Positions 18,640 to 26,851 of a DNA stretch of 64,000 bases are shown piece after piece (the first letter of the stretch is position 1; every line of letters starts with the position of its first letter). This DNA comes from Microbacterium mitrae. GTDB taxonomy: Bacteria; Actinomycetota; Actinomycetes; Actinomycetales; Microbacteriaceae. The stretch covers positions 1,240,001 to 1,304,000 of the forward strand of contig NZ_VRSW01000001.1 of the NCBI RefSeq assembly GCF_008017445.1. Reading direction: 5' to 3'. The notes below the pieces were generated by a model that saw only the letters and a list, made by a program, of their open reading frames with translations, did not search any database and was not told where the DNA came from. A program made the translations under genes and the position numbers.

Positions 18640-18665
18640 TGGCGGTGACGGTGGGATTTGAACCC
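18640..18665. repeat. att site, left (copy of tRNA-Ser 3' end)
   Basis: The 26 bases from TGGCGGTGACGG to TTTGAACCC are identical to 26762-26787, which form the 3' end of tRNA-Ser including CCA. The match ends exactly where the left copy diverges (G instead of A at the next base). This is the chromosomal tRNA end displaced by integration. Confidence 0.88.
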
Positions 18666-18764
18666 GAATGCCACCCGCGGGATGCCGCGAGGAGTAACCT
18701 CCTTCCGCAGAAAAACGGGCTTTTTCAATCTTCGAGGTCATTTGGAGATCACGATAATCTCTCG

Positions 18765-18792
18765 GGTTGTTGCCACCTCGTTGCCACGGTGA
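18765..18792. repeat. 28-base repeat shared with the integrase 3' end
   Basis: It matches 26669-26696 at 26 of 28 positions, including two GTTGCCAC units and a closing CGGTGA. In the right copy these are the last codons of the integrase (VVATLLPR and stop). The left copy would read VVATSLPR and stop. It may be a fragment of a second integrase gene or a pair of arm-type sites near both ends. Confidence 0.7.
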
Positions 18793-19295
18793 GAGCTCCG
18801 CTGGCGATTCGAAGGGTACGCAAAGTTGCGCACCCCACCCGGTATGGACTGATCCTCACCCGTCGGGCCGCGACCACCAATGGGGTAGCGTCTCTCGACA
18901 CCCTTGTGTGCCGCATGCCCTCGCGCGCGCGACCCCCTCCCCAAACCTCGGGGGGAGATAGATCACTGCCGGAGAAGTCTCCTCTGCGGCAGGTCGTAGA
19001 GATTTGGACGCCCTACCCCTGCTTGTGGTGTTCCGGCAGCGATGCGGATGACTTTGAGGAGGTCGTGTGTCGGTAGCGCGGTAGCGCGGGTGGTGAATGT
19101 CTCGGCGTTGCGAGTGATGTCGGGGGCTTGGAGCGGTTGGGGATGTTGGCGTGGAGGTTACGTCGATGCGTTCTGTCTGGCGTGGCGAGGCCTGCCCCTG
19201 GGTCAGGGTTGGGGTTGCCGTTGAGTTGGTCCGGCATAGGCGAGGGGGATGACCCGTGTCATGGAGCCACCCCCCTGGTATGCCTGTGGACGTGG
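18793..19295. other. non-coding end of the element, 500 bases
   Basis: No convincing gene lies between the capsid stop and the left att region. A hairpin is visible at 18966-18992 (CTGCCG/CGGCAG arms). On the minus strand, downstream of an ATG at 19262, one frame reads protein-like text (for example TRATALPTHDLLKVIRIAAG) but is broken by two stops, so it may be a decayed gene. A cis site such as a packaging or replication signal could be here; none is recognisable. Confidence 0.4.
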
Positions 19296-20477
19296 TTACG
19301 CTTCTGTGAGCGTGACCGCCACGAACGCGACCGGCTTGCTTACGCGGAAGCCGTAGCGGCCCTCGAACATGAACAGGAACGTGTTGTCGGTCGTGCGCTT
19401 TCCTGCGTCGACGATGAGTTCGTCGTCGCCGATCGGGATGATCTCTGCCTGGTCCCAATCTCCGACCACCGCGGTTCCTGCCGGCATCCCAACGCTCGTG
19501 ACGACCGACGCACCAAGGAAGTCCTCGATCGCCGCGCGGGACGGGAACAGGAATGGGCCAGTGGCGCCGCCTTCGCGCATCAGCTCGAGGCTCTGCAGGT
19601 CGTCCGGGTTGAGCACCCAGCCGGTGAAAGGCAGCTCCTGCGCGACGAACTTGTGCTTCGCGTTCGACAGAGTGCGCAGCAGGTCCGTGCTCCATGCCTG
19701 CGTCTGGATTCCGGAGGTGTTCAGGATGCCGGTGAAAGCGTCACCAGTTCCATCGCCTGACAGCATGTCCGCTTCGATCGCTTGCATGGTGTCTTCGGCG
19801 AGCTGGGTGCGCACGATGTCCGTGATCGCTTCATAGTCGTTGAGATACCGATACGGGAGATCTTCGGTCTTGTTCGCGTACACGCGGTACTTGTCATCGA
19901 CCTCACCAAACGTGTAGACCGACGTCGGTTTCGCTTCGCCATCGGGGACAGCGGCCGCGTTGTTCGTGCGTGCCGTCTGTCGGATGTATTGGAACCCGTT
20001 CCCTACCCGTTCGCCCTGGGGCTTGCCGCGTCCAACAAGATCGAGCAGCGTGGTGCGCTTTGCGAGGATCTCGACTGGCTCTCCGACGAGATCGGGAACC
20101 GAGATAGATCCGGAGACGAGCGCCTTCACTCCGTCAACGACTCCGAGGCGTGAGGACATGCCCTGCACGCCGCTGACAGCCTTCTCCGCCCAACGCTGGC
20201 CACGTGCCGACTGCTTCCGCGCGATCCCGCTCTTTGCCGGCGTCGACACGTTGAGGCCGGTATCGAAACCGATCGCGGCAAGGTTGTCGATGAGTTCCTG
20301 ACTCGCGCGCAGCTTTTCAGCGTCACCACGCTCGGATGCCGCCTTGGCTTCCTTGTACGCCTTCAGGTGATTATTGACTGCGACGAGGTCGTCTCCAACA
20401 ATGTCGCGTTCACCGTACTTTAGTGAAATGTCACGCGCGGCCTTCAGCTCGCGCGCCATGATGCTTTTGTAGTCCAC
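19296..20477 (-). CDS. HK97-fold major capsid protein
   Basis: A 393-aa protein of the HK97-like capsid family. An N-terminal helical, charged part (residues 1-75, a delta-domain-like scaffold) is followed by a linker and the capsid fold. Recognisable segments are SVPDLVGEPVEIL, RTTLLDLVGRGK, a DDKYRVYANKTEDLPYRYLNDYEAI stretch (the long helix), GDGTGDAFTGILNTSG, TGWVLNPDDLQSLELM, and FLGASVVTSVGMPAGTAVVGDW near the end. These last two match the A-domain pattern of actinophage capsids. The start is a GTG at 20477 with AGGAG 8 bases upstream; the longer frame to 20510 has no such signal. It is the only virion gene in the element. No protease or portal gene is adjacent. Confidence 0.9.
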   Translation of the reverse strand: MDYKSIMARELKAARDISLKYGERDIVGDDLVAVNNHLKAYKEAKAASERGDAEKLRASQELIDNLAAIGFDTGLNVSTPAKSGIARKQSARGQRWAEKAVSGVQGMSSRLGVVDGVKALVSGSISVPDLVGEPVEILAKRTTLLDLVGRGKPQGERVGNGFQYIRQTARTNNAAAVPDGEAKPTSVYTFGEVDDKYRVYANKTEDLPYRYLNDYEAITDIVRTQLAEDTMQAIEADMLSGDGTGDAFTGILNTSGIQTQAWSTDLLRTLSNAKHKFVAQELPFTGWVLNPDDLQSLELMREGGATGPFLFPSRAAIEDFLGASVVTSVGMPAGTAVVGDWDQAEIIPIGDDELIVDAGKRTTDNTFLFMFEGRYGFRVSKPVAFVAVTLTEA

Positions 20478-20688
20478 GATGGGACTCCTCTCAGGGGGGT
20501 GCGCCAGCAACCGAAGCCGCGTTTGGCGCGATGAGTTGTGGATCGCCGGGCGGAAGGTGTGTATGTGGCCTCTACCGTGATCACACGGGAAGCGGGTTCA
20601 ACCCTGGCCCTGCGCTGCTCGCATCCGACCGGATCCTCGTCGACTTGGCCGCTAAGCTCTTCGTCGCCTTGTCCGTAGTCGCTGATCC

Positions 20689-20925
20689 TCACCATTCGTC
20701 CGTCTGGGGCTCTTCGATCTGACGTTCTTGGCCCGGCCCGGACGAATTGGCTACAGCGCCTTCAACTCGCTGAGATGACTCTATCTCAGGTGTCGGACGT
20801 TCGCCGCGAAGCCACGCAATCTCGTCTGCAGCGGCGAGGAACCCTGACCCGTCCCGGAGTCGGCGCGGCGGACGCCGCGTGGCCGCCGCACCCTTGCCAT
20901 CATCGATCACGCGCCACTCGCTCAC
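20689..20925 (-). CDS. small protein, unknown function (element)
   Basis: A 78-aa hydrophilic protein (MSEWRVIDDGKGAAATRRPP at the start). Its ATG overlaps the stop of the upstream gene (ATGA), which supports that it is real. No family recognised. The 211 bases between its stop and the capsid start contain the capsid Shine-Dalgarno but no clear gene. Confidence 0.6.
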   Translation of the reverse strand: MSEWRVIDDGKGAAATRRPPRRLRDGSGFLAAADEIAWLRGERPTPEIESSQRVEGAVANSSGPGQERQIEEPQTDEW

Positions 20926-21251
20926 TGCTCGCCCGCCTCTTGGATGGCTCGCCTGCGCTCCGTCATGAGATCGATAGCCCCGGGTAGATCACCATTCCGC
21001 AGCAGCCGCTCGATGCGGTCAAGTATGCGCCCATCCCGTCGTTTCGCGAACAGCAACGACTCGAAGTTAGCCTTCCAGCGATCAGCGCGAGAACGAGCAC
21101 CCTTTAACCGCGCCTCAGCAGTATGCGCACGCATTTCGACTGTCCGCACGTCATCAATTCTTTGCTTCAGGTCACCAAGCGTTCGACGGAGCTCTCCAGC
21201 GTAACGACGCCAAGCATCCTCGCCGTCACCGCGCCGCGGCTGCTCGATCAC
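20922..21251 (-). CDS. small coiled-coil-like protein, unknown function (element)
   Basis: A 109-aa, strongly charged, probably helical protein. Heptad-like stretches run through RRTLGDLKQRIDDVRTVEMR and later RILDRIERLLRNGD. It begins with a GTG sharing one base with the upstream TAG stop (TAGTG). It belongs to a tight leftward operon that ends in the capsid gene. A scaffold or sizing role can be imagined from position and composition but nothing shows it. Confidence 0.6.
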   Translation of the reverse strand: MIEQPRRGDGEDAWRRYAGELRRTLGDLKQRIDDVRTVEMRAHTAEARLKGARSRADRWKANFESLLFAKRRDGRILDRIERLLRNGDLPGAIDLMTERRRAIQEAGEQ

Positions 21252-21502
21252 TACGCCACCTCCGCGAGCTGACGCGCCAGCACGGCACGTACGAACGAAG
21301 CCGCGTCATCGCCATGAACATCGACAAGGATGCCGGCGAGATCTTTGCTCAGCACCTGCAGCACGTTGATCGTTGCGCCCATCTCCCCAAACCCATAATC
21401 GTCATCGAACATTGCCTGCACCGCCGCCGCGAACATCTCGGTATCGCCAGTGACCTGCGCTGCTACTAGTTGTGACGCGCGAGCCTGATCAATTGCCCTC
21501 AT
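21251..21502 (-). CDS. small acidic protein, unknown function (element)
   Basis: An 83-aa acidic, helix-rich protein (segments MFAAAVQAMFDDDYGFGEMG and SKDLAGILVDVHGDDAASFV). Its stop overlaps the start of the next gene. Similar small acidic proteins are common in actinophage early operons, but no family was recognised. Confidence 0.6.
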   Translation of the reverse strand: MRAIDQARASQLVAAQVTGDTEMFAAAVQAMFDDDYGFGEMGATINVLQVLSKDLAGILVDVHGDDAASFVRAVLARQLAEVA

Positions 21503-21514
21503 CGTTTCCTGCTT

Positions 21515-22294
21515 TCAATTCGTTGTTGTCCTTCGCCATCGTTGCGAGTCCAGCTCTATTCCGGTGCTAACGAGTGGCTCCCTCTCGTTGTACGGCCCGT
21601 ATACCGCCGCGTAGAGCCCGTCTTCGTCGAGGTCATTGCGTTCCCAGTGGCAGTTTGTGCACTGGTACCAAGTGGGCGCGCCTCCGCGCGACGGTGGGAC
21701 GATCACGACGTACTTGAGATCGCATACGACGCATTCGCGGCCCGCGTGCCGGCGACGGTCAACGAGTGGCCATCTGTTCCGGACGCGGTTCACGGTCCAG
21801 AAGCCAGGGTGATCCGGAACCGTTGCCGCAACGGTGAGGTTCCACCATTCGGTGAGCGCGGCGTGGTCATTCGCGATTTCTGGGAGCTGCGCGATGATCC
21901 CCCACACGAGTTCGCGCGCACGGGTGAGGATCTCCGGTGCGGTGGGGTTCTGTCCATGGAGGGTGAGTCCGATGATCATTTCTAGGTCACGCATCGCGTC
22001 GAGAATGTCGACGTCGACCGGGGCGAGCGTGCCTTGCTCGACGCTACGCCGCGTGTCCTTGAGGGTTCGGACGCTGTGCGTGTCGGTGAGCTCTCGGAGA
22101 TGGCTGAGGAGTGCTGGGATAGCTTCGAGAGCGCGCGTGAGCCGGCCGCGGCATCGGTGGCAGATCAGGATGCCGTCAGCGGCGCTGGCAGGTACGCATC
22201 CTTGGCAGGTCGCGTCTTGTGTTCCGTAGTCGGGGCAGGCGGCGAAGTGCTGCGCGGGGATGATGCATCCGTTGATGCAGGCTCGGTCGGTCAT
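21515..22294 (-). CDS. zinc-finger-containing protein, unknown function (element)
   Basis: A 259-aa protein with Cys clusters at both ends. CINGC, ACPDY, TCQGC and CHRC lie within the first 50 residues, and CVVC with CTNC about 25 residues apart lie near residue 200-225. The middle is helical (EAIPALLSHLRELTDTHSVR). The clusters look like two zinc ribbons around a helical core, an arrangement common in actinophage proteins of unknown role. A DNA-binding or adaptor role is inferred from the ribbons only. A 7-base gap separates it from the WhiB-like gene. Confidence 0.7.
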   Translation of the reverse strand: MTDRACINGCIIPAQHFAACPDYGTQDATCQGCVPASAADGILICHRCRGRLTRALEAIPALLSHLRELTDTHSVRTLKDTRRSVEQGTLAPVDVDILDAMRDLEMIIGLTLHGQNPTAPEILTRARELVWGIIAQLPEIANDHAALTEWWNLTVAATVPDHPGFWTVNRVRNRWPLVDRRRHAGRECVVCDLKYVVIVPPSRGGAPTWYQCTNCHWERNDLDEDGLYAAVYGPYNEREPLVSTGIELDSQRWRRTTTN

Positions 22295-22301
22295 GAGTTC
22301 C

Positions 22302-22619
22302 TCACGGTGTTGCTTGGGTGCCAGCCCAGAAGCCGGCTGTTGGTTGAGCGGCGACGGCGAAGGCCTCGCATGGGTCGCGGATTGGGCATGTGTTGCAGGT
22401 CAGGCGCATCTGGTTCGCGTTGTGTGAGTTCGGCGGATCCTCGGCGGTGAATCGTAAGTCGTTCGCGCACGCAGCGCGGTGCCGGGTCATCGCGGTCTGC
22501 AGCGCGGCCCACTCTCGAGGGCTTTCACGTGTGAGGCGTAGCACGCCCTCGCGAACGGTTGCACTACTCAGACCCTGGAGGCGGGAGCGGAGGACTTGGG
22601 GAGGTCGCAGGTCGGTCAC
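22302..22619 (-). CDS. WhiB-like iron-sulfur regulator (element)
   Basis: A 105-aa protein with the four Wbl cysteines: one in AACAND near residue 50, a CNTC pair near residues 75-78 and one in RDPCEAF about six residues later. GFWAG follows in place of the usual GxWGG turn. The [4Fe-4S]-binding Wbl proteins are specific to actinobacteria and their phages and usually act on sigma factor region 4. In phages they can redirect host transcription or block superinfection; here the role is unknown. The GTG start overlaps the upstream stop (GTGA). Confidence 0.85.
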   Translation of the reverse strand: MTDLRPPQVLRSRLQGLSSATVREGVLRLTRESPREWAALQTAMTRHRAACANDLRFTAEDPPNSHNANQMRLTCNTCPIRDPCEAFAVAAQPTAGFWAGTQATP

Positions 22620-22861
22620 AGCTTCGCGTCCACCTTCGCGCGCCAGGCTGGCGAGCCCTCGGCAACTTTCCCGTCATCGCGCAGACCACAACCGCACCAG
22701 CCGGATACCGGATTGAACAGGTGCGAGACGCAGACGCCGGATGGCGCCGACGAAGGCTGAGCCTCGGGGTATGCGGAATTGGGGGACCCTTGGTGCGATG
22801 CGTCTTGTGCTGCGCTGAGTCCGCCGCCGAGATCCGCGTACGCTTCGCTGACGTGGCTCAC
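22616..22861 (-). CDS. small protein with CxCG motif, unknown function (element)
   Basis: An 81-aa protein starting at a GTG that overlaps the upstream stop, with GGGAGG five bases before it. A longer frame to 22942 is less likely because of this clear signal. The C-terminal half has VCVSHLFNPVSGWCGCGLRD, three Cys and a His that could bind one metal ion. No family recognised. Confidence 0.6.
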   Translation of the reverse strand: MSHVSEAYADLGGGLSAAQDASHQGSPNSAYPEAQPSSAPSGVCVSHLFNPVSGWCGCGLRDDGKVAEGSPAWRAKVDAKL

Positions 22862-23601
22862 GCAACCTCCCAGAGTGGGTCGGTGTTCTCGCAGATCATG
22901 CAGGTGCCGTCGTTCAACCGGCGGTGGTTGCCGGTGCCGCAATCAAGGACGCGAGGACTCATAGTGGAATCTCGGCGAGGATCGGGCGCAGCCTCTGCGG
23001 CTCGACGATCATTCGCACATGCTCGACAGGGCTTCGAATGCTCCCAGGTGGAGTGGATTCGACAGGATCGGGTGGGGGTCGCGCTCGCGCGTCCCTCCTC
23101 CTCTTTATCCTCCTTCTTCCTCAGGGCACCGCTCAGCGGTGTGTGTTCCGCACCGAAACCGGTATGCATTCGACCGTTCAGCGGTATGCGTCCATCGCCG
23201 GTCAGACCACGGCGAGCGGTATCCGAACCGTGATCATTAACACCACGACTAGCGGTATCCATCGCAGCCGGAGATTTCGGCCGCAGAGGGTTACCCTCGC
23301 CATCCAGGATCGCGTACCGAGAATGGCGACCTGGTGCACTCTTTGCGAGCGTCGAGATCAGCCCGTAATTGGCGAGCACGCCGACCGCACGGTCAACGGC
23401 GCGAATCGCGCTTGTCGTGCCCGGCACGATGGCTAGAGACTCTGCCAATGAGGCGCGCCCGGCGAAATAGGTTGGATTCGCATCGTTGTCCAACGCTGTC
23501 AACGCCATGAACACATACACACGCACTGGGGCATGCTCACGCAGCCCCTGAGTATAAGCCACCGAGTATGCGGCTTTAGCAAGTCCTGCTCCCATCATCA
23601 C
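22858..23601 (-). CDS. winged-helix replication-type protein (element)
   Basis: A 247-aa protein. The first 110 residues look like a phage replisome-organiser winged helix: VRVYVFMALTALDNDANPTY is followed by RASLAESLAIVP, a helix pair and GLISTLAKS. A low-complexity charged linker comes next (RKKEDKEEEGR), and the C-terminus holds two Cys/His groups (CRACAND and LDCGTGNHRRLNDGTCMICE), probably zinc ribbons. Such proteins in small actinobacterial elements usually start replication or load the helicase. This role is inferred from fold pattern and position, and a regulator role is possible. Confidence 0.6.
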   Translation of the reverse strand: MMMGAGLAKAAYSVAYTQGLREHAPVRVYVFMALTALDNDANPTYFAGRASLAESLAIVPGTTSAIRAVDRAVGVLANYGLISTLAKSAPGRHSRYAILDGEGNPLRPKSPAAMDTASRGVNDHGSDTARRGLTGDGRIPLNGRMHTGFGAEHTPLSGALRKKEDKEEEGRASATPTRSCRIHSTWEHSKPCRACANDRRAAEAAPDPRRDSTMSPRVLDCGTGNHRRLNDGTCMICENTDPLWEVA

Positions 23602-23611
23602 TCCAACTCCT

Positions 23612-24694
23612 TCAGCGCGCGCCGTTGATCTTGTCGCACTCGCCGCGCGCCCACAGCAGATCGTTCAGTAGACGATCTGTCTGAACGCCGTCGAGCTCGT
23701 CGAACACGTCGAGCGAGAGAGTCGCGTCTGAGCCATCGATCGATTGCTGGATTCGGATCGTGTAATGGTCTTGAAGGATCTCGTCGAGGACGTGCTTGCC
23801 GTCGGTCGCGTGCCAGTCTCGGTGGCACTTCTGCACGTCACAAAGCACCGCATTGAACTCGTGCTCAATGCTGGGCCGGTACAGGCGGTATGTGCGGTAC
23901 GTGTGGCGAGCGTTGCCGGCTTCATCGTTGTCAATCACGCGCCACCCTGCACGGAGGAAATGCCCCCTCCGCGCGTCGCGTAGAACCTTTTCGGCATCTT
24001 CGAGGTCGACGTCTTTTGCACCGCTGAGCACGCGCACGAGGAAGCAGTCTTCGCCTTCGTCTGTCGTGTACGACGTGATCGTAAATGCGCGGCGCCAGAG
24101 TCGCCCTGCAGAGTCGGTCACTAATTCCACAGGTGTCTCGGACTGCACGAAGCGGATCTCGCGGTGCATGAGATTCTGGTTCGCCCAGTCGGCTTCTTCT
24201 TGGGTTACGTCACCGGTGTAATCTACGACGTCGAGTTCGGTCTCGGGGACTGCCAGCGCGAGGAACTCAGTTGGAAGCATTCCTGCCTCGCGTGCGGCCT
24301 CGGCGAGCTCGCCGACGGTGAGTTGGTCGATGGGCTGGCCGGACCACAGTGCGGACACGTCGACAGTGGAGGTCGGCTCGGGGGAGCGTGTAGCGTTGGA
24401 CATGATCGGTTCTCCTTCGTAGGTGTTGGTGTTCTGGTCCTCGCCCCGGGCCGGTGCAACGGCATCCGGGGCGTTCTGCTGTCCAGCACGCCGAGCACGT
24501 ACTTCGTCGTGCTCGTTGCCCGCGAATGCCTGTACGGGCGTGTCGTAGTCGATGCGGAACGCTCCGGCTTCCCGCAGCATGTCGCGGGCGTATTCGACGG
24601 CGGCGGGCGGGTCGGTCAGGTTGATCGATGCGATGCTTCCTGACGGCATTCGCCAACGCTCAACAGCCTCAGCTTGGCTCTGCGTCTGCAGCAC
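23612..24694 (-). CDS. unknown protein with possible internal start (element)
   Basis: A 360-aa acidic protein, no family recognised. It opens with a GTG two bases after the excisionase-like stop, with a purine-rich GAGGCGG upstream. A second, stronger signal lies inside: AAGGAG eight bases before the ATG at 24403 (codon 98), giving a 263-aa form. The long C-terminal part is rich in strands (MHREIRFVQSETPVELVT, GWRVIDNDEAGNARHTYRTY). The element may make both forms. It sits first or second in the leftward early operon. Confidence 0.6.
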   Translation of the reverse strand: MLQTQSQAEAVERWRMPSGSIASINLTDPPAAVEYARDMLREAGAFRIDYDTPVQAFAGNEHDEVRARRAGQQNAPDAVAPARGEDQNTNTYEGEPIMSNATRSPEPTSTVDVSALWSGQPIDQLTVGELAEAAREAGMLPTEFLALAVPETELDVVDYTGDVTQEEADWANQNLMHREIRFVQSETPVELVTDSAGRLWRRAFTITSYTTDEGEDCFLVRVLSGAKDVDLEDAEKVLRDARRGHFLRAGWRVIDNDEAGNARHTYRTYRLYRPSIEHEFNAVLCDVQKCHRDWHATDGKHVLDEILQDHYTIRIQQSIDGSDATLSLDVFDELDGVQTDRLLNDLLWARGECDKINGAR

Positions 24695-24696
24695 GG

Positions 24697-24894
24697 TCAG
24701 ACCGCCTCTGCCGTGCTCGTGCGCTCGGACGCTTCCAGCCAGGCGATCACGTCGCTCTCGCGATACACAACCTTGCGCGCAGTTGGTTTCAGATATACCG
24801 GCCCCTTGCCGGTGAAACGCAGCTGTGCAAGTCCACCCCGTGTCATTCCTGGAATCAGGTCACACACCTGGTCGGGGGTCAAATACTTTTCCAT
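24697..24894 (-). CDS. excisionase-like winged HTH (AlpA/MerR type, element)
   Basis: A 65-aa protein. KYLTPDQVCDLIPGMTRGGL is the helix-turn-helix and VYLKPTARKVVYRESDVIAWL the wing plus the closing helix, the pattern of phage excisionases and AlpA-like activators. The ATG at 24894 follows a GGAAGCGG Shine-Dalgarno. A longer frame to 24969 would run through the operator region and is not likely. It is divergent from the repressor gene and likely controls or directs excision of the element. Confidence 0.8.
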   Translation of the reverse strand: MEKYLTPDQVCDLIPGMTRGGLAQLRFTGKGPVYLKPTARKVVYRESDVIAWLEASERTSTAEAV

Positions 24895-24904
24895 TCCGCT
24901 TCCG

Positions 24905-24995
24905 ATCATTTTGACTGTTGTACAAATCATCTTGATCACTATTAGAGCGAGCATCTGCGCCAAAGTCAATATGAACTAGAAAATAATCATTTTGA
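24905..24995. promoter_or_regulatory. three operator-like repeats in the repressor/excisionase switch
   Basis: The AT-rich gap between the divergent excisionase-like and repressor genes has three direct copies of ATCATYTTGA at 24905, 24926 and 24986. A gap with repeated sites between an early gene and a repressor is the usual layout of a lysogeny switch. Confidence 0.6.
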
Positions 24996-25012
24996 TTCAC
25001 TAGAATCTCGGC

Positions 25013-25549
25013 ATGGCAGCTAATGAAAGCTTCAAATCGCTGAACCTCGGCGCAACCGGTCGGCATGCAGCCGCTCAAATCGCGAGACAACGCAACGCGC
25101 AAGGCCTCAGCTATGTGGCGCTTTCAAATCGACTCGAAGAACTCGGATGGCCGTTACCCGTATTGGCACTCCGCCGAATCGAAGCGGGAGCTCGCAGGGT
25201 AACGGTCGATGATCTATTCGCACTCGCAGTCGCCCTGGGCGTTTCGCCATTCGAGTTACTCACCCGCGAGAGCGAAAACACTCCCGCAGGTACCGGAGTC
25301 CCACCGGGCGTAACAACCGCCGAGGTTCTGGCCTGGGCGCGCAACGAAACGGGGCTCAGCACGGATGAAAGACTCGACTACTGGAGCCAAGCCGCTGATC
25401 GCGCAATGGCTGAGATAGAAGAATGGGAACAGTTCGAAGCGACCGCCAAGAACGGTGCAGCTCGCAAGCTTGCCAGCGACCGCGTGCGAAAACTCGAAGA
25501 TCAATTGGCGCTCGCCGTGAAACGGCTCGAGGCTCTCAACGATGGGTAG
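25013..25549 (+). CDS. XRE-type HTH repressor (element)
   Basis: A 178-aa protein. The N-terminal HTH covers about residues 18-85: AAQIARQRNAQGLSYVALSN, then RRIEAGARRVTVDDLFALAVAL and GVSPFELL. The C-terminal half is helical with many charges (DERLDYWSQAADRAMAEIEE) and could dimerise. It overlaps the integrase gene by 8 bases, so both would be made in the integrated state. Its role as the maintenance repressor is inferred from the divergent layout and operator repeats. Confidence 0.8.
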   Translation: MAANESFKSLNLGATGRHAAAQIARQRNAQGLSYVALSNRLEELGWPLPVLALRRIEAGARRVTVDDLFALAVALGVSPFELLTRESENTPAGTGVPPGVTTAEVLAWARNETGLSTDERLDYWSQAADRAMAEIEEWEQFEATAKNGAARKLASDRVRKLEDQLALAVKRLEALNDG

Positions 25550-26696
25550 CATCTACGCGTACGAGACGAAGGCCGGCAAGAAGTTTTACCGGATCATCTA
25601 CCGACGCCCCGACAACACCCAAACCCAGGAACGCGGATTCACTCGGCGCCGTGACGCTGAGCTGCGCCTAGCTGAAGTCGAGATCGGCAAATCAAAGGGC
25701 GACTACGTCAACCCCACCGACGCACGCGAGCCCATCGAGACGATCGCTGCAGGATGGCTCAAGGCTCGCGAGCCGGTCATGAAGGCATCGAGCTACCGAT
25801 CCATCAAAAGCGCGTGGGAGACGCACGTACAGCCGCGCTGGGGAGCACGTCGCATCGGCTCCGTGAAGCACTCCGAGGTGCAAGATTGGGTGTCTGATCT
25901 AGCACGCGAGAAGTCAGCCACAACCGTGTTGCGTGCGTACGGTGTCCTCGCGGCCGTTCTCGACGTCGCGGTGAACGATCGACGCATCAGCCGGAACGTC
26001 GCGAGAGGTGTCACGCTCCCCCGCAAGGTTCCGAAATCGAAGCCCTACCTCACACACCAGCAAGTCGCGACCCTCGCTGAAACCTCAGCACACCCCACGC
26101 TCGTGCTCTTCCTGGCCTACACCGGCCTCAGATGGGGCGAAGCGACCGCGCTGCGGGTCAAGCACGTCGACGCTCTCAGACGGCGCGTGAACGTCGAAGA
26201 GAACGCCGTCATGGTCGGCGCGGTCGTGCACGTCGGCACACCAAAGACCCATGAAACGCGCTCCGTGCCATATCCCGCGTTCCTAGCGCTGCAGATCGCG
26301 AAGCTCTGCGAGGGAAAGAGCCGCGACGATCTCGTGTTTGGTGACGGGCTAACGCACATGCGTCTACCGAACTCCCGCGACGGATGGTTCTCCGCAGCGG
26401 TGAAGCGAGTCCTTGAGGCGGAGGCGAAAGCGGCGGCCGCGGCGAAGGCTCGAGGAGATGAAGCGCCGACGCTCATGCCGCGCGTGACACCGCATGATCT
26501 GCGACACACCGCCGCGAGTCTCGCGATCAGCTCGGGCGCAAACGTGAAGGCCGTGCAACGCATGCTGGGGCATGCCTCCGCGAGCATGACGCTCGACACC
26601 TACGCGGATCTCTTTGACGATGATCTAGACGGCGTCGCGCATGCGCTCGATCAGGCTAGGCGTACAGCGGTTGTTGCCACTTTGTTGCCACGGTGA
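25542..26696 (+). CDS. tyrosine recombinase integrase (element)
   Basis: A 384-aa phage-type integrase. The N-terminus carries an arm-binding/AP2-like part (IYAYETKAGKKFYRIIYRRP), then the core-binding helical domain (residues 65-150). The catalytic domain shows Arg in TGLRWGEA, HDLRHTAA, the His of GHAS and the Tyr of TLDTYADLF. Everything required is present. The stop is 65 bases from the tRNA-Ser 3' end, its target. The last codons lie in a 28-base sequence repeated near the left end of the element. Confidence 0.95.
   Translation: MGSIYAYETKAGKKFYRIIYRRPDNTQTQERGFTRRRDAELRLAEVEIGKSKGDYVNPTDAREPIETIAAGWLKAREPVMKASSYRSIKSAWETHVQPRWGARRIGSVKHSEVQDWVSDLAREKSATTVLRAYGVLAAVLDVAVNDRRISRNVARGVTLPRKVPKSKPYLTHQQVATLAETSAHPTLVLFLAYTGLRWGEATALRVKHVDALRRRVNVEENAVMVGAVVHVGTPKTHETRSVPYPAFLALQIAKLCEGKSRDDLVFGDGLTHMRLPNSRDGWFSAAVKRVLEAEAKAAAAAKARGDEAPTLMPRVTPHDLRHTAASLAISSGANVKAVQRMLGHASASMTLDTYADLFDDDLDGVAHALDQARRTAVVATLLPR
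26669..26696. repeat. 28-base repeat, right copy (integrase 3' end)
   Basis: It matches 18765-18792 at 26 of 28 positions and holds two GTTGCCAC units. It overlaps the last nine codons (including the stop) of the integrase gene. Confidence 0.7.
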
Positions 26697-26710
26697 TGAT
26701 TCCGGGAATG

Positions 26711-26759
26711 ACGAAGGCCCCGACTTCCCAGTGTTTTCTAGGAGAGGCGGGGCCTTCGT
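26711..26759. terminator. terminator between integrase and tRNA-Ser
   Basis: ACGAAGGCCCCG at 26711-26722 pairs perfectly with CGGGGCCTTCGT at 26748-26759 (12-base stem). It can end both the rightward integrase transcript and the leftward tRNA transcript. Confidence 0.7.
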
Positions 26760-26761
26760 GG

Positions 26762-26787
26762 TGGCGGTGACGGTGGGATTTGAACCC
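26762..26787. repeat. att site, right (within tRNA-Ser)
   Basis: Twenty-six bases identical to 18640-18665. They cover CCA, discriminator, acceptor 3' arm and most of the T arm of tRNA-Ser. The incoming element supplied this 3' end and so kept the tRNA intact. Confidence 0.88.
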
Positions 26788-26851
26788 ACGGTAGGGGTGA
26801 ACCTACACAACATTTCGAGTGTTGCACCTTCGGCCGCTCGGACACGTCACC
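26762..26851 (-). tRNA. tRNA-Ser(CGA)
   Basis: Read on the minus strand, the acceptor stem GGTGACG pairs with CGTCACC. The D arm has TCCGAGCGGCC, and the anticodon stem CAACA/TGTTG encloses the loop CTCGAAA with anticodon CGA. A long variable arm (TAGGTTCACCCCTA region) and a T arm GTGGGTTCAAATCCCAC follow, then G and an encoded CCA. The long variable arm and anticodon give serine (codon UCG). It is the integration site of the element to its left. Confidence 0.93.

What the first reader, a model, noticed from the sequence alone, without database searches (positions are those of the whole stretch)
18640..26787. Capsid-only phage satellite in tRNA-Ser
The element encodes integrase, repressor, excisionase, a replication-type protein, WhiB and one HK97-fold capsid protein, but I find no terminase, portal, protease, tail or lysis genes in any frame. 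Known capsid-forming satellites carry a packaging set as well. A satellite with only a major capsid gene implies that it either builds its own small heads on a helper's portal and terminase, or uses the capsid protein to interfere with a helper phage. The small helical protein genes just upstream of the capsid gene could be scaffold or size-control factors.
Basis: partly seen in the sequence, partly recalled or inferred. Interest (0 to 1): 0.85.

Follow-up and report, generated by a model that had tools for sequence, protein, structure and literature searches.

The report
Capsid-only satellite in a tRNA gene
An 8-kb piece of mobile DNA in an actinobacterium carries its own virus-shell gene but none of the other parts needed to build a virus, and it belongs to a widespread family of such elements that probably wrap themselves in their own small shells using parts taken from a helper virus.

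Summary
An 8.1-kb element lies between exact 26-bp repeats (18640-18665, 26762-26787), one in tRNA-Ser. It encodes a tyrosine integrase, a repressor, an excisionase-like protein, WhiB, a weakly supported initiator and one full-length HK97-type major capsid protein (MCP). I found no terminase, portal, protease or tail gene.

It is probably not a decayed prophage. In a 49-protein tree its MCP sits in a 27-row group separated (99/98) from 20 MCPs with complete head modules. In the stretches held, none of the 27 has a separate portal, large terminase or protease by my profiles (one fuses a protease to the MCP); all 27 have an integrase. Relatives include a closed 8,963-bp environmental circle and a Rhodococcus "plasmid" that is a tandem dimer of a 6.8-kb element. 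In a capsid-domain census of 299 same-family genomes, 20 of 43 examined loci had MCP and integrase without terminase, portal or protease; 19 were prophages.

Best reading (about 0.6): an integrative phage satellite that makes its own small head and borrows portal, packaging motor, protease and tail. Interference is the main rival. "Integrase plus MCP" candidate PICIs are published for Mycobacterium, so this is a new variant of a known kind. No particle or helper has been shown.

The parts
18640..18665 (.). distal attachment-site repeat, 26 bp
   Evidence: exact copy of 26762-26787
26762..26787 (.). attachment-site repeat inside tRNA-Ser, 26 bp
   Evidence: exact copy of 18640-18665; inside tRNA-Ser
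26762..26851 (-). tRNA-Ser(cga), target gene, kept intact
   Evidence: ARAGORN
18765..18792 (.). possible integrase arm site (GTTGCCAC repeats), distal end
   Evidence: 93% copy of 26669-26696; role inferred
26669..26696 (.). possible integrase arm site, integrase end
   Evidence: role inferred
18666..19295 (.). stretch with no convincing gene between MCP and the distal repeat; siblings L018 and L019 carry small terminase and cargo here
19296..20477 (-). HK97-type major capsid protein, 393 aa with N-terminal delta-like helical region; ORF open to 20510
   Evidence: PF05065, TIGR01554, AlphaFold and Foldseek, cross-link triad aligned
20689..20925 (-). orf2, 78 aa, conserved just upstream of MCP in L088, L113, L114 (weakly L018)
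20922..21251 (-). orf3, 109 aa, charged helix-type protein; homologues in L111, L112, L113
   Evidence: no family over cut-off
21251..21502 (-). orf4, 83 aa, conserved in L113, L018, L088
21515..22294 (-). orf5, 259 aa, cysteine-rich, phrog_1467; 46% identical over 237 aa to an L111 frame
22302..22619 (-). WhiB-like regulator
   Evidence: PF02467
22616..22942 (-). orf7, 108 aa, homologues in L111 and L113
22858..23601 (-). putative replication initiator, 247 aa
   Evidence: phrog_3171 E=0.0086, 58% over 77 aa to L111; weak
23612..24403 (-). orf9, unknown, about 263 aa from ATG 24403
   Evidence: ORF; no family over cut-off
24697..24969 (-). excisionase-like HTH protein
   Evidence: PHROG 66 E=0.0008; 65% over 62 aa to L018
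25013..25549 (+). HTH repressor
   Evidence: PF01381
25542..26696 (+). tyrosine integrase
   Evidence: PF00589; 57% to L018

Best explanation
It is an integrative phage satellite that keeps only the head shell. Shown by sequence: integrase, repressor, attachment sites and an intact HK97-type MCP of a satellite-associated lineage; portal, terminase, protease and tail genes not found. Inferred: a helper phage derepresses it; it excises to a circle (circular relatives are on record), replicates, and makes MCP with the small orf2-orf4 proteins. The MCP assembles a small head (7-10 kb of DNA, about T=3 or below) around the helper's portal; the helper's protease trims the N-terminal delta region and the helper's motor fills it; helper tails are added. 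Siblings with a small terminase subunit choose the DNA themselves; this element must use a helper recognition site or an unrecognised factor.
For: MCP group of 27 rows without complete prophages versus 20 head-module MCPs plus L022 and L066, UFBoot 99 / SH-aLRT 98 (40-row tree 99/96). All 27 have a tyrosine or serine integrase in the stretch held. HK97 K169, N356, E363 align with window K183, N365, E372, invariant in 22 of 22 aligned MCPs at 22-44% identity to the window's. Fold nearest to D3 and HK97 heads; first encapsulin at rank 35. Circular relatives: L088 with a 127-bp terminal repeat (8,963-bp circle) and a Rhodococcus tandem dimer. Repeat-bounded group members span 8.0-9.7 kb, bar L062 at 11.8 kb. 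TerS over Pfam cut-off in siblings L016, L018, L019, L020, L114. Conserved gene order in Microbacterium.
Against: No particle, transduction, induction or helper has been shown. I know of no proven case of a foreign HK97 shell on an unrelated portal. This element has no recognisable small terminase. The assembly holds no resident HK97-type helper by four Pfam families. In the wider 79-row quick tree the group's support falls to 87 and three MCP-only loci lie beside prophage MCPs. Annotation rests on sequence profiles and may miss very divergent portal or terminase genes; neighbourhoods are at most about 10 kb to either side and some end at contig edges (L089 ends in its MCP).
Confidence: 0.6

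Rival explanations
1. Interference device: the MCP (with orf2-orf4) poisons or diverts head assembly of an infecting phage, protecting the host cell; element spread is secondary.
For: Lone structural gene; sibling L019 carries an Abi_2 gene and 120 ORFs of 15 elements gave matches to 27 PADLOC families, many of them regulators.
Against: The MCP is full length and keeps delta region, fold and cross-link triad. The 20 phage records listed (of 367 matched) are at most 32.9% identical, so co-assembly with a helper shell is doubtful. Several siblings add TerS, which points to packaging.
Confidence: 0.17
2. Decayed prophage: a remnant that has lost all but one structural gene.
For: Only one morphogenesis gene; a 630-bp stretch without a convincing gene next to it. 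Some other MCP-only loci (L157, L160, L162) do lie beside prophage MCPs.
Against: MCP group with no complete prophage among 27 rows nor among 26 in the wider tree; no convincing terminase/portal remnant; intact repeats, integrase and a cassette conserved in Microbacterium.
Confidence: 0.08
3. The element makes tailless shells or compartments (encapsulin-like carriers) needing no portal or tail.
For: No portal or tail gene; HK97 fold shared with encapsulins.
Against: HK97 and D3 heads match better than encapsulins; cross-link triad and delta-like region kept; a few siblings add TerS and L020 a tape measure protein, which make sense only with tailed particles.
Confidence: 0.06
4. Ordinary PICI-type satellite packaged into helper heads; MCP is a size factor mixed into helper shells rather than a shell of its own.
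For: Known satellites remodel helper capsids; small genome.
Against: Known size factors are scaffolds or decoration proteins, not complete MCPs (recalled); low identity to the phage MCPs listed.
Confidence: 0.09

Closest known systems
Candidate PICIs of Mycobacterium (integrase + MCP), including phiRv1/phiRv2; PMC10654092
   Same: Operational definition (integration machinery plus MCP) is met; tRNA targets with tyrosine integrases and serine-integrase versions occur in both; relatives of this MCP occur in Mycolicibacterium (L119, L121).
   Different: The paper treats Mycobacteriaceae; the passages seen mention terminase and scaffold in some, and do not discuss absence of portal or a satellite-specific MCP lineage ('portal' does not occur in its main text).
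Capsid-forming PICIs (cf-PICIs)
   Same: Integrative satellite that encodes its own head protein and is thought to take tails from helpers.
   Different: cf-PICIs average 14 kb (PMC10803314, passage) and carry a head/packaging set (recalled; original paper not seen). Here portal, large terminase and protease were not found.
MulchRoom / MiniFlayer satellites of Streptomyces phages; PMC10690885
   Same: Actinobacterial satellites with their own MCP; MulchRoom has an integrase and makes 44-nm heads.
   Different: They encode small and large terminase, portal, scaffold and head-tail adapter; 14.8 and 17.4 kb.
PLE satellites of Vibrio cholerae; PMC12987554 (tail components)
   Same: Satellites that swap selected morphogenesis proteins into otherwise helper-made particles (PLE11 tape measure protein in chimeric tails).
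   Different: PLE11 swaps tail parts; this element is proposed to swap the shell protein.

Membership tests
HK97-type major capsid proteins (PF05065, TIGR01554) | score over curated cut-off and HK97 fold | tested here: met
   82.6 vs 24.2 bits; 78.3 vs 27.5 bits, near full length; Foldseek top hits HK97/D3
Encapsulin nanocompartments | nearest structural relatives are encapsulins; no phage-type delta region | tested here: not met
   first encapsulin at rank 35, E 7e-13, versus D3/HK97 5e-19; N-terminal helical region present
Candidate PICI as defined in PMC10654092 | integration machinery plus MCP gene in one phage-like region | tested here: met
cf-PICI | own MCP | tested here: met
cf-PICI | own portal, terminase and protease (definition recalled) | tested here: not met
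   none in the element proteins scanned; no PF04860, PF03354, PF04586 in the whole assembly
Phage satellite in general | excision, packaging and transfer dependent on a helper phage | not testable with these tools
   needs induction or infection
Classical PICI | small terminase subunit or other packaging redirector (recalled) | tested here: not met
   no TerS by Pfam, PHROGs or sibling TerS, one marginal antisense hit E=0.014; siblings L016, L018, L019, L020, L114 have it
Complete or remnant HK97-type prophage | terminase, portal, protease, tail genes or their remnants | tested here: not met

The most novel reading that the evidence does not exclude
An ancient lineage of actinobacterial satellites has kept only the shell protein and fits it to the portal, motor, protease and tail of unrelated helpers, so the shell-portal joint is far more interchangeable than thought. 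More generally these satellites carry just the parts that measure or choose: MCP (head size), TerS (which DNA), tape measure protein (tail length), in changing combinations, and take everything else.
Probability: 0.4. Interest if true: 0.8.

Novelty: new variant of a known kind. Interest (0 to 1): 0.6.

Why it matters
If the mechanism is right, the minimal set of genes for a satellite to own its particle is one shell gene, and HK97 heads can be nucleated on a stranger's portal. That would give a simple test bed for what sets head size and what the portal-shell contact needs. It also means that in this bacterial family about as many phage-capsid loci belong to satellite-like elements as to prophages (20 versus 19 of 43 examined), so prophage counts based on capsid genes alone would be inflated.

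Tried and rejected
Decayed prophage: rejected for this lineage on the MCP tree and on absence of remnants. Encapsulin: rejected on fold ranking. Hidden small terminase in the 630 bp between MCP and repeat: six-frame reading and sibling TerS gave nothing convincing. orf4 as a conserved core gene of the whole group: clear homologues only in L018 and L088 among the loci then held, plus L113; L019 marginal (E=0.12). orf3 as a TerS substitute: it occurs in window, L111, L112 and L113, where I found no TerS, but L088 lacks both, so the pattern is only suggestive. Scans with the window MCP alone found nothing in genome contigs or viral contigs, nor did L061 or L020 MCP in viral contigs; L088 MCP and alignment A5 found only L088 there.

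Limits: labels rest on my own HMMs seeded from seven annotated phage or prophage records. The MTP profile cross-hit MCP ORFs and was ignored there. The 54 MCP rows include those seven records, chosen for having head modules. The library scans of element ORFs used 120 ORFs of 15 elements (nine from the window; 119 from a list of 172; left out were MCPs, integrases, known TerS, cargo and many short or doubtful frames), and the tool showed 25 of 36 Pfam and 25 of 105 PHROG families. The census left out 3 of 46 loci (G113:C102, G172:C26, G172:C70).

Results against my reading: in the wider 79-row quick tree the branch with the window falls to support 87; L064, inside the group, falls outside; L022, inside only, stays outside; three MCP-only loci (L157, L160, L162) sit beside prophage MCPs, so some MCP-only loci have other origins or may be decayed. 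L066 groups with prophages. L059 has a weak and L121 a moderate small-terminase hit by my HMM only.
Full report
What is there. The element runs from 18640 to 26787, between exact 26-bp repeats, one of which starts tRNA-Ser(cga). A second pair of 28-bp repeats (93%) lies just inside the ends and may be integrase arm sites (role inferred). Rightward genes are an HTH repressor and a tyrosine integrase. Leftward genes are an excisionase-like protein, orf9, a weakly supported initiator, orf7, WhiB, orf5, orf4, orf3, orf2 and one MCP. The window lies in a 2.82-Mb assembly.

The capsid protein. It matches TIGR01554 over nearly its whole length. The AlphaFold model (mean pLDDT 80, pTM 0.67) has N-terminal helices, a hairpin, a long helix and C-terminal strands. 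Foldseek ranks D3 and HK97 heads first; the first encapsulin is at rank 35. The HK97 residues K169, N356 and E363 (their cross-linking role is recalled, not from a call; positions counted by me on the printed alignment) align with window K183, N365 and E372, which are invariant in 22 of 22 MCPs of alignment A3 (five of the 22 are phage or prophage MCPs) and 15 of 15 of A4. So the protein looks like a working shell protein that still carries a delta-like region although no protease gene was found.

Siblings. A scan of 299 same-family genomes with the MCP gave 13 with a match, the window's own included. Neighbourhoods of G086, G089, G060 and G064 (L018-L021) show repeat-bounded elements of 9.2-9.7 kb with a homologous integrase and an MCP. 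L018, L019 and L020 add a small terminase subunit; L019 adds an Abi_2 gene and L020 a tape measure protein. None has portal, large terminase or protease by my profiles. An order-wide profile search gave 28 of 396 genomes. Of 54 sequences with an MCP, seven of them reference phage or prophage records, 21 had at least two of terminase, portal and protease near it, 4 had terminase only, and 29 neither. Whole-genome Pfam checks agree: PF04860 in 4 of 18 genomes, PF03354 in 2 of 19 (both under cut-off), PF04586 in 4 of 19, none at the MCP locus and none in the window's own genome. The 25 of 36 Pfam families shown for 120 ORFs of 15 elements included no large terminase, portal or prohead protease.

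Named relatives. A second genome-contig scan gave 11 loci: Microbacterium marinilacus (58%, best segment), three other Microbacterium, Mycetocola, Pseudonocardia, Actinomadura, Ilumatobacter, two Mycolicibacterium and Nocardia. None of the 11 has a large terminase or portal by my profiles; Nocardia L120 has a protease fused to its MCP. The order orf4-orf3-orf2-MCP recurs in M. helvum L113, and initiator-orf7-WhiB-orf5-orf3-MCP in L111.

Tree. In a careful 49-row tree, 27 MCPs (window included; 26 MCP-only loci and the Nocardia fusion) are separated from 22 (20 with terminase, portal and protease, plus L022 and L066) with UFBoot 99 and SH-aLRT 98 (40-row version 99/96). All 27 have a tyrosine or serine recombinase in the stretch held. 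To avoid seeding bias I then took every PF05065 match in 299 family genomes: 47 rows, 46 loci, 43 examined (eleven loci and the window). Nineteen are prophages (terminase plus portal, protease or tail genes), 16 have integrase and MCP without terminase, portal, protease or tape measure, 4 have MCP plus a tape measure protein, 2 MCP plus terminase, 1 MCP plus portal, 1 is degraded. The large-terminase profile hit in 19 of 19 of the loci counted as prophages; since a terminase hit was part of that label this is only a loose control. Some of the 16 are unbounded or on short contigs (L157, L162, L176 without repeats; L022-L024 without a convincing pair). In the 79-row quick tree the window's branch has 26 rows and no prophage, support 87, while L157, L160 and L162 lie beside prophage MCPs and L022 and L064 lie outside. 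So MCP-only loci arose more than once, and the window belongs to the largest such lineage seen.

Mobility. The environmental contig L088 has a 127-bp exact terminal repeat, giving an 8,963-bp circle with serine integrase, orf4, orf2 and an MCP 51% identical (best segment) to the window's. A 13,649-bp Rhodococcus pyridinivorans plasmid record is a tandem dimer (99.8%) of a 6.8-kb unit with integrase, TerS and MCP. These fit excised, replicating forms; neither proves packaging.

How it probably works. Heads for 8-12 kb are predicted at T of about 2.3 to 3, 38-43 nm (PMC7762592, abstract and section 7 read). Repeat-bounded elements of this group fall at 8.0-9.7 kb (window, L018-L021, L059, L065, L111, L113, L120; L111's repeat is only 16 bp), with L062 at 11.8 kb, which by eye holds two transposase genes. 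I infer that the element builds its own small head on a helper's portal and is filled by the helper's motor. No call shows a particle or helper.

Against the literature. PMC10654092 (passages) defines candidate Mycobacterium PICIs as integrase plus MCP, so the kind is known. PMC10690885 (abstract, first part of Results, section 17) describes Streptomyces satellites with a full head set. PMC12987554 (passages) shows a satellite tape measure protein in chimeric tails and putative tmp genes in cf-PICIs. PMC3583192 (passages) noted a phage capsid gene on pWTY27. PMC10803314 and PMC11389934 (passages) give satellite classes and sizes. The cf-PICI paper was not seen (recalled). Searches listed no paper that I recognised as describing a satellite-specific MCP lineage without portal or terminase outside Mycobacterium; only listings and the named passages were read.

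Noticed in passing
L020:11615-13741, L168:6860-9049, L172:6977-9007, L173:10429-11979: Repeat-bounded elements (8.7-9.6 kb) that carry an MCP and a tape measure protein but no terminase large subunit, portal or other tail gene by my profiles; L066 is a similar unbounded case in another family. L173's tape measure call is under Pfam cut-off.
   Followed up: partly
L155, L161 (MCP + terminase), L158 (MCP + portal): Repeat-bounded elements with an MCP and one further head gene by my profiles; L158 has PF04860 at 111 bits.
   Followed up: partly
L120:8915-10711: Nocardia cyriacigeorgica element (36-bp repeats, tRNA-Asn, 9.0 kb) with prohead protease fused to MCP in one 599-aa ORF.
   Followed up: partly
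L016 (NZ_CP096036.1): Recorded as a plasmid, it is a tandem dimer of a 6.8-kb integrase + TerS + MCP element; the MCP of one copy is split in the record.
   Followed up: partly
L015:10642-12102 (pWTY27): Streptomyces plasmid with transfer genes and an MCP of the same satellite lineage.
   Followed up: partly
L079, L082-L087, L163, L167-L169, L172, L176, L178, L179: A second kind of MCP-bearing element, mostly with an integrase, with a short MCP (about 265-350 aa, stop to stop); several have, by eye, an acidic scaffold-like protein just upstream.
   Followed up: partly
L113:11699-11908: A second excisionase-like gene beyond the MCP in the M. helvum element.
   Followed up: no
G306, G569, G502, G127: Genomes that hold both an MCP-only locus and, elsewhere, a portal and a prohead protease gene; possible satellite-helper pairs.
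   Followed up: no
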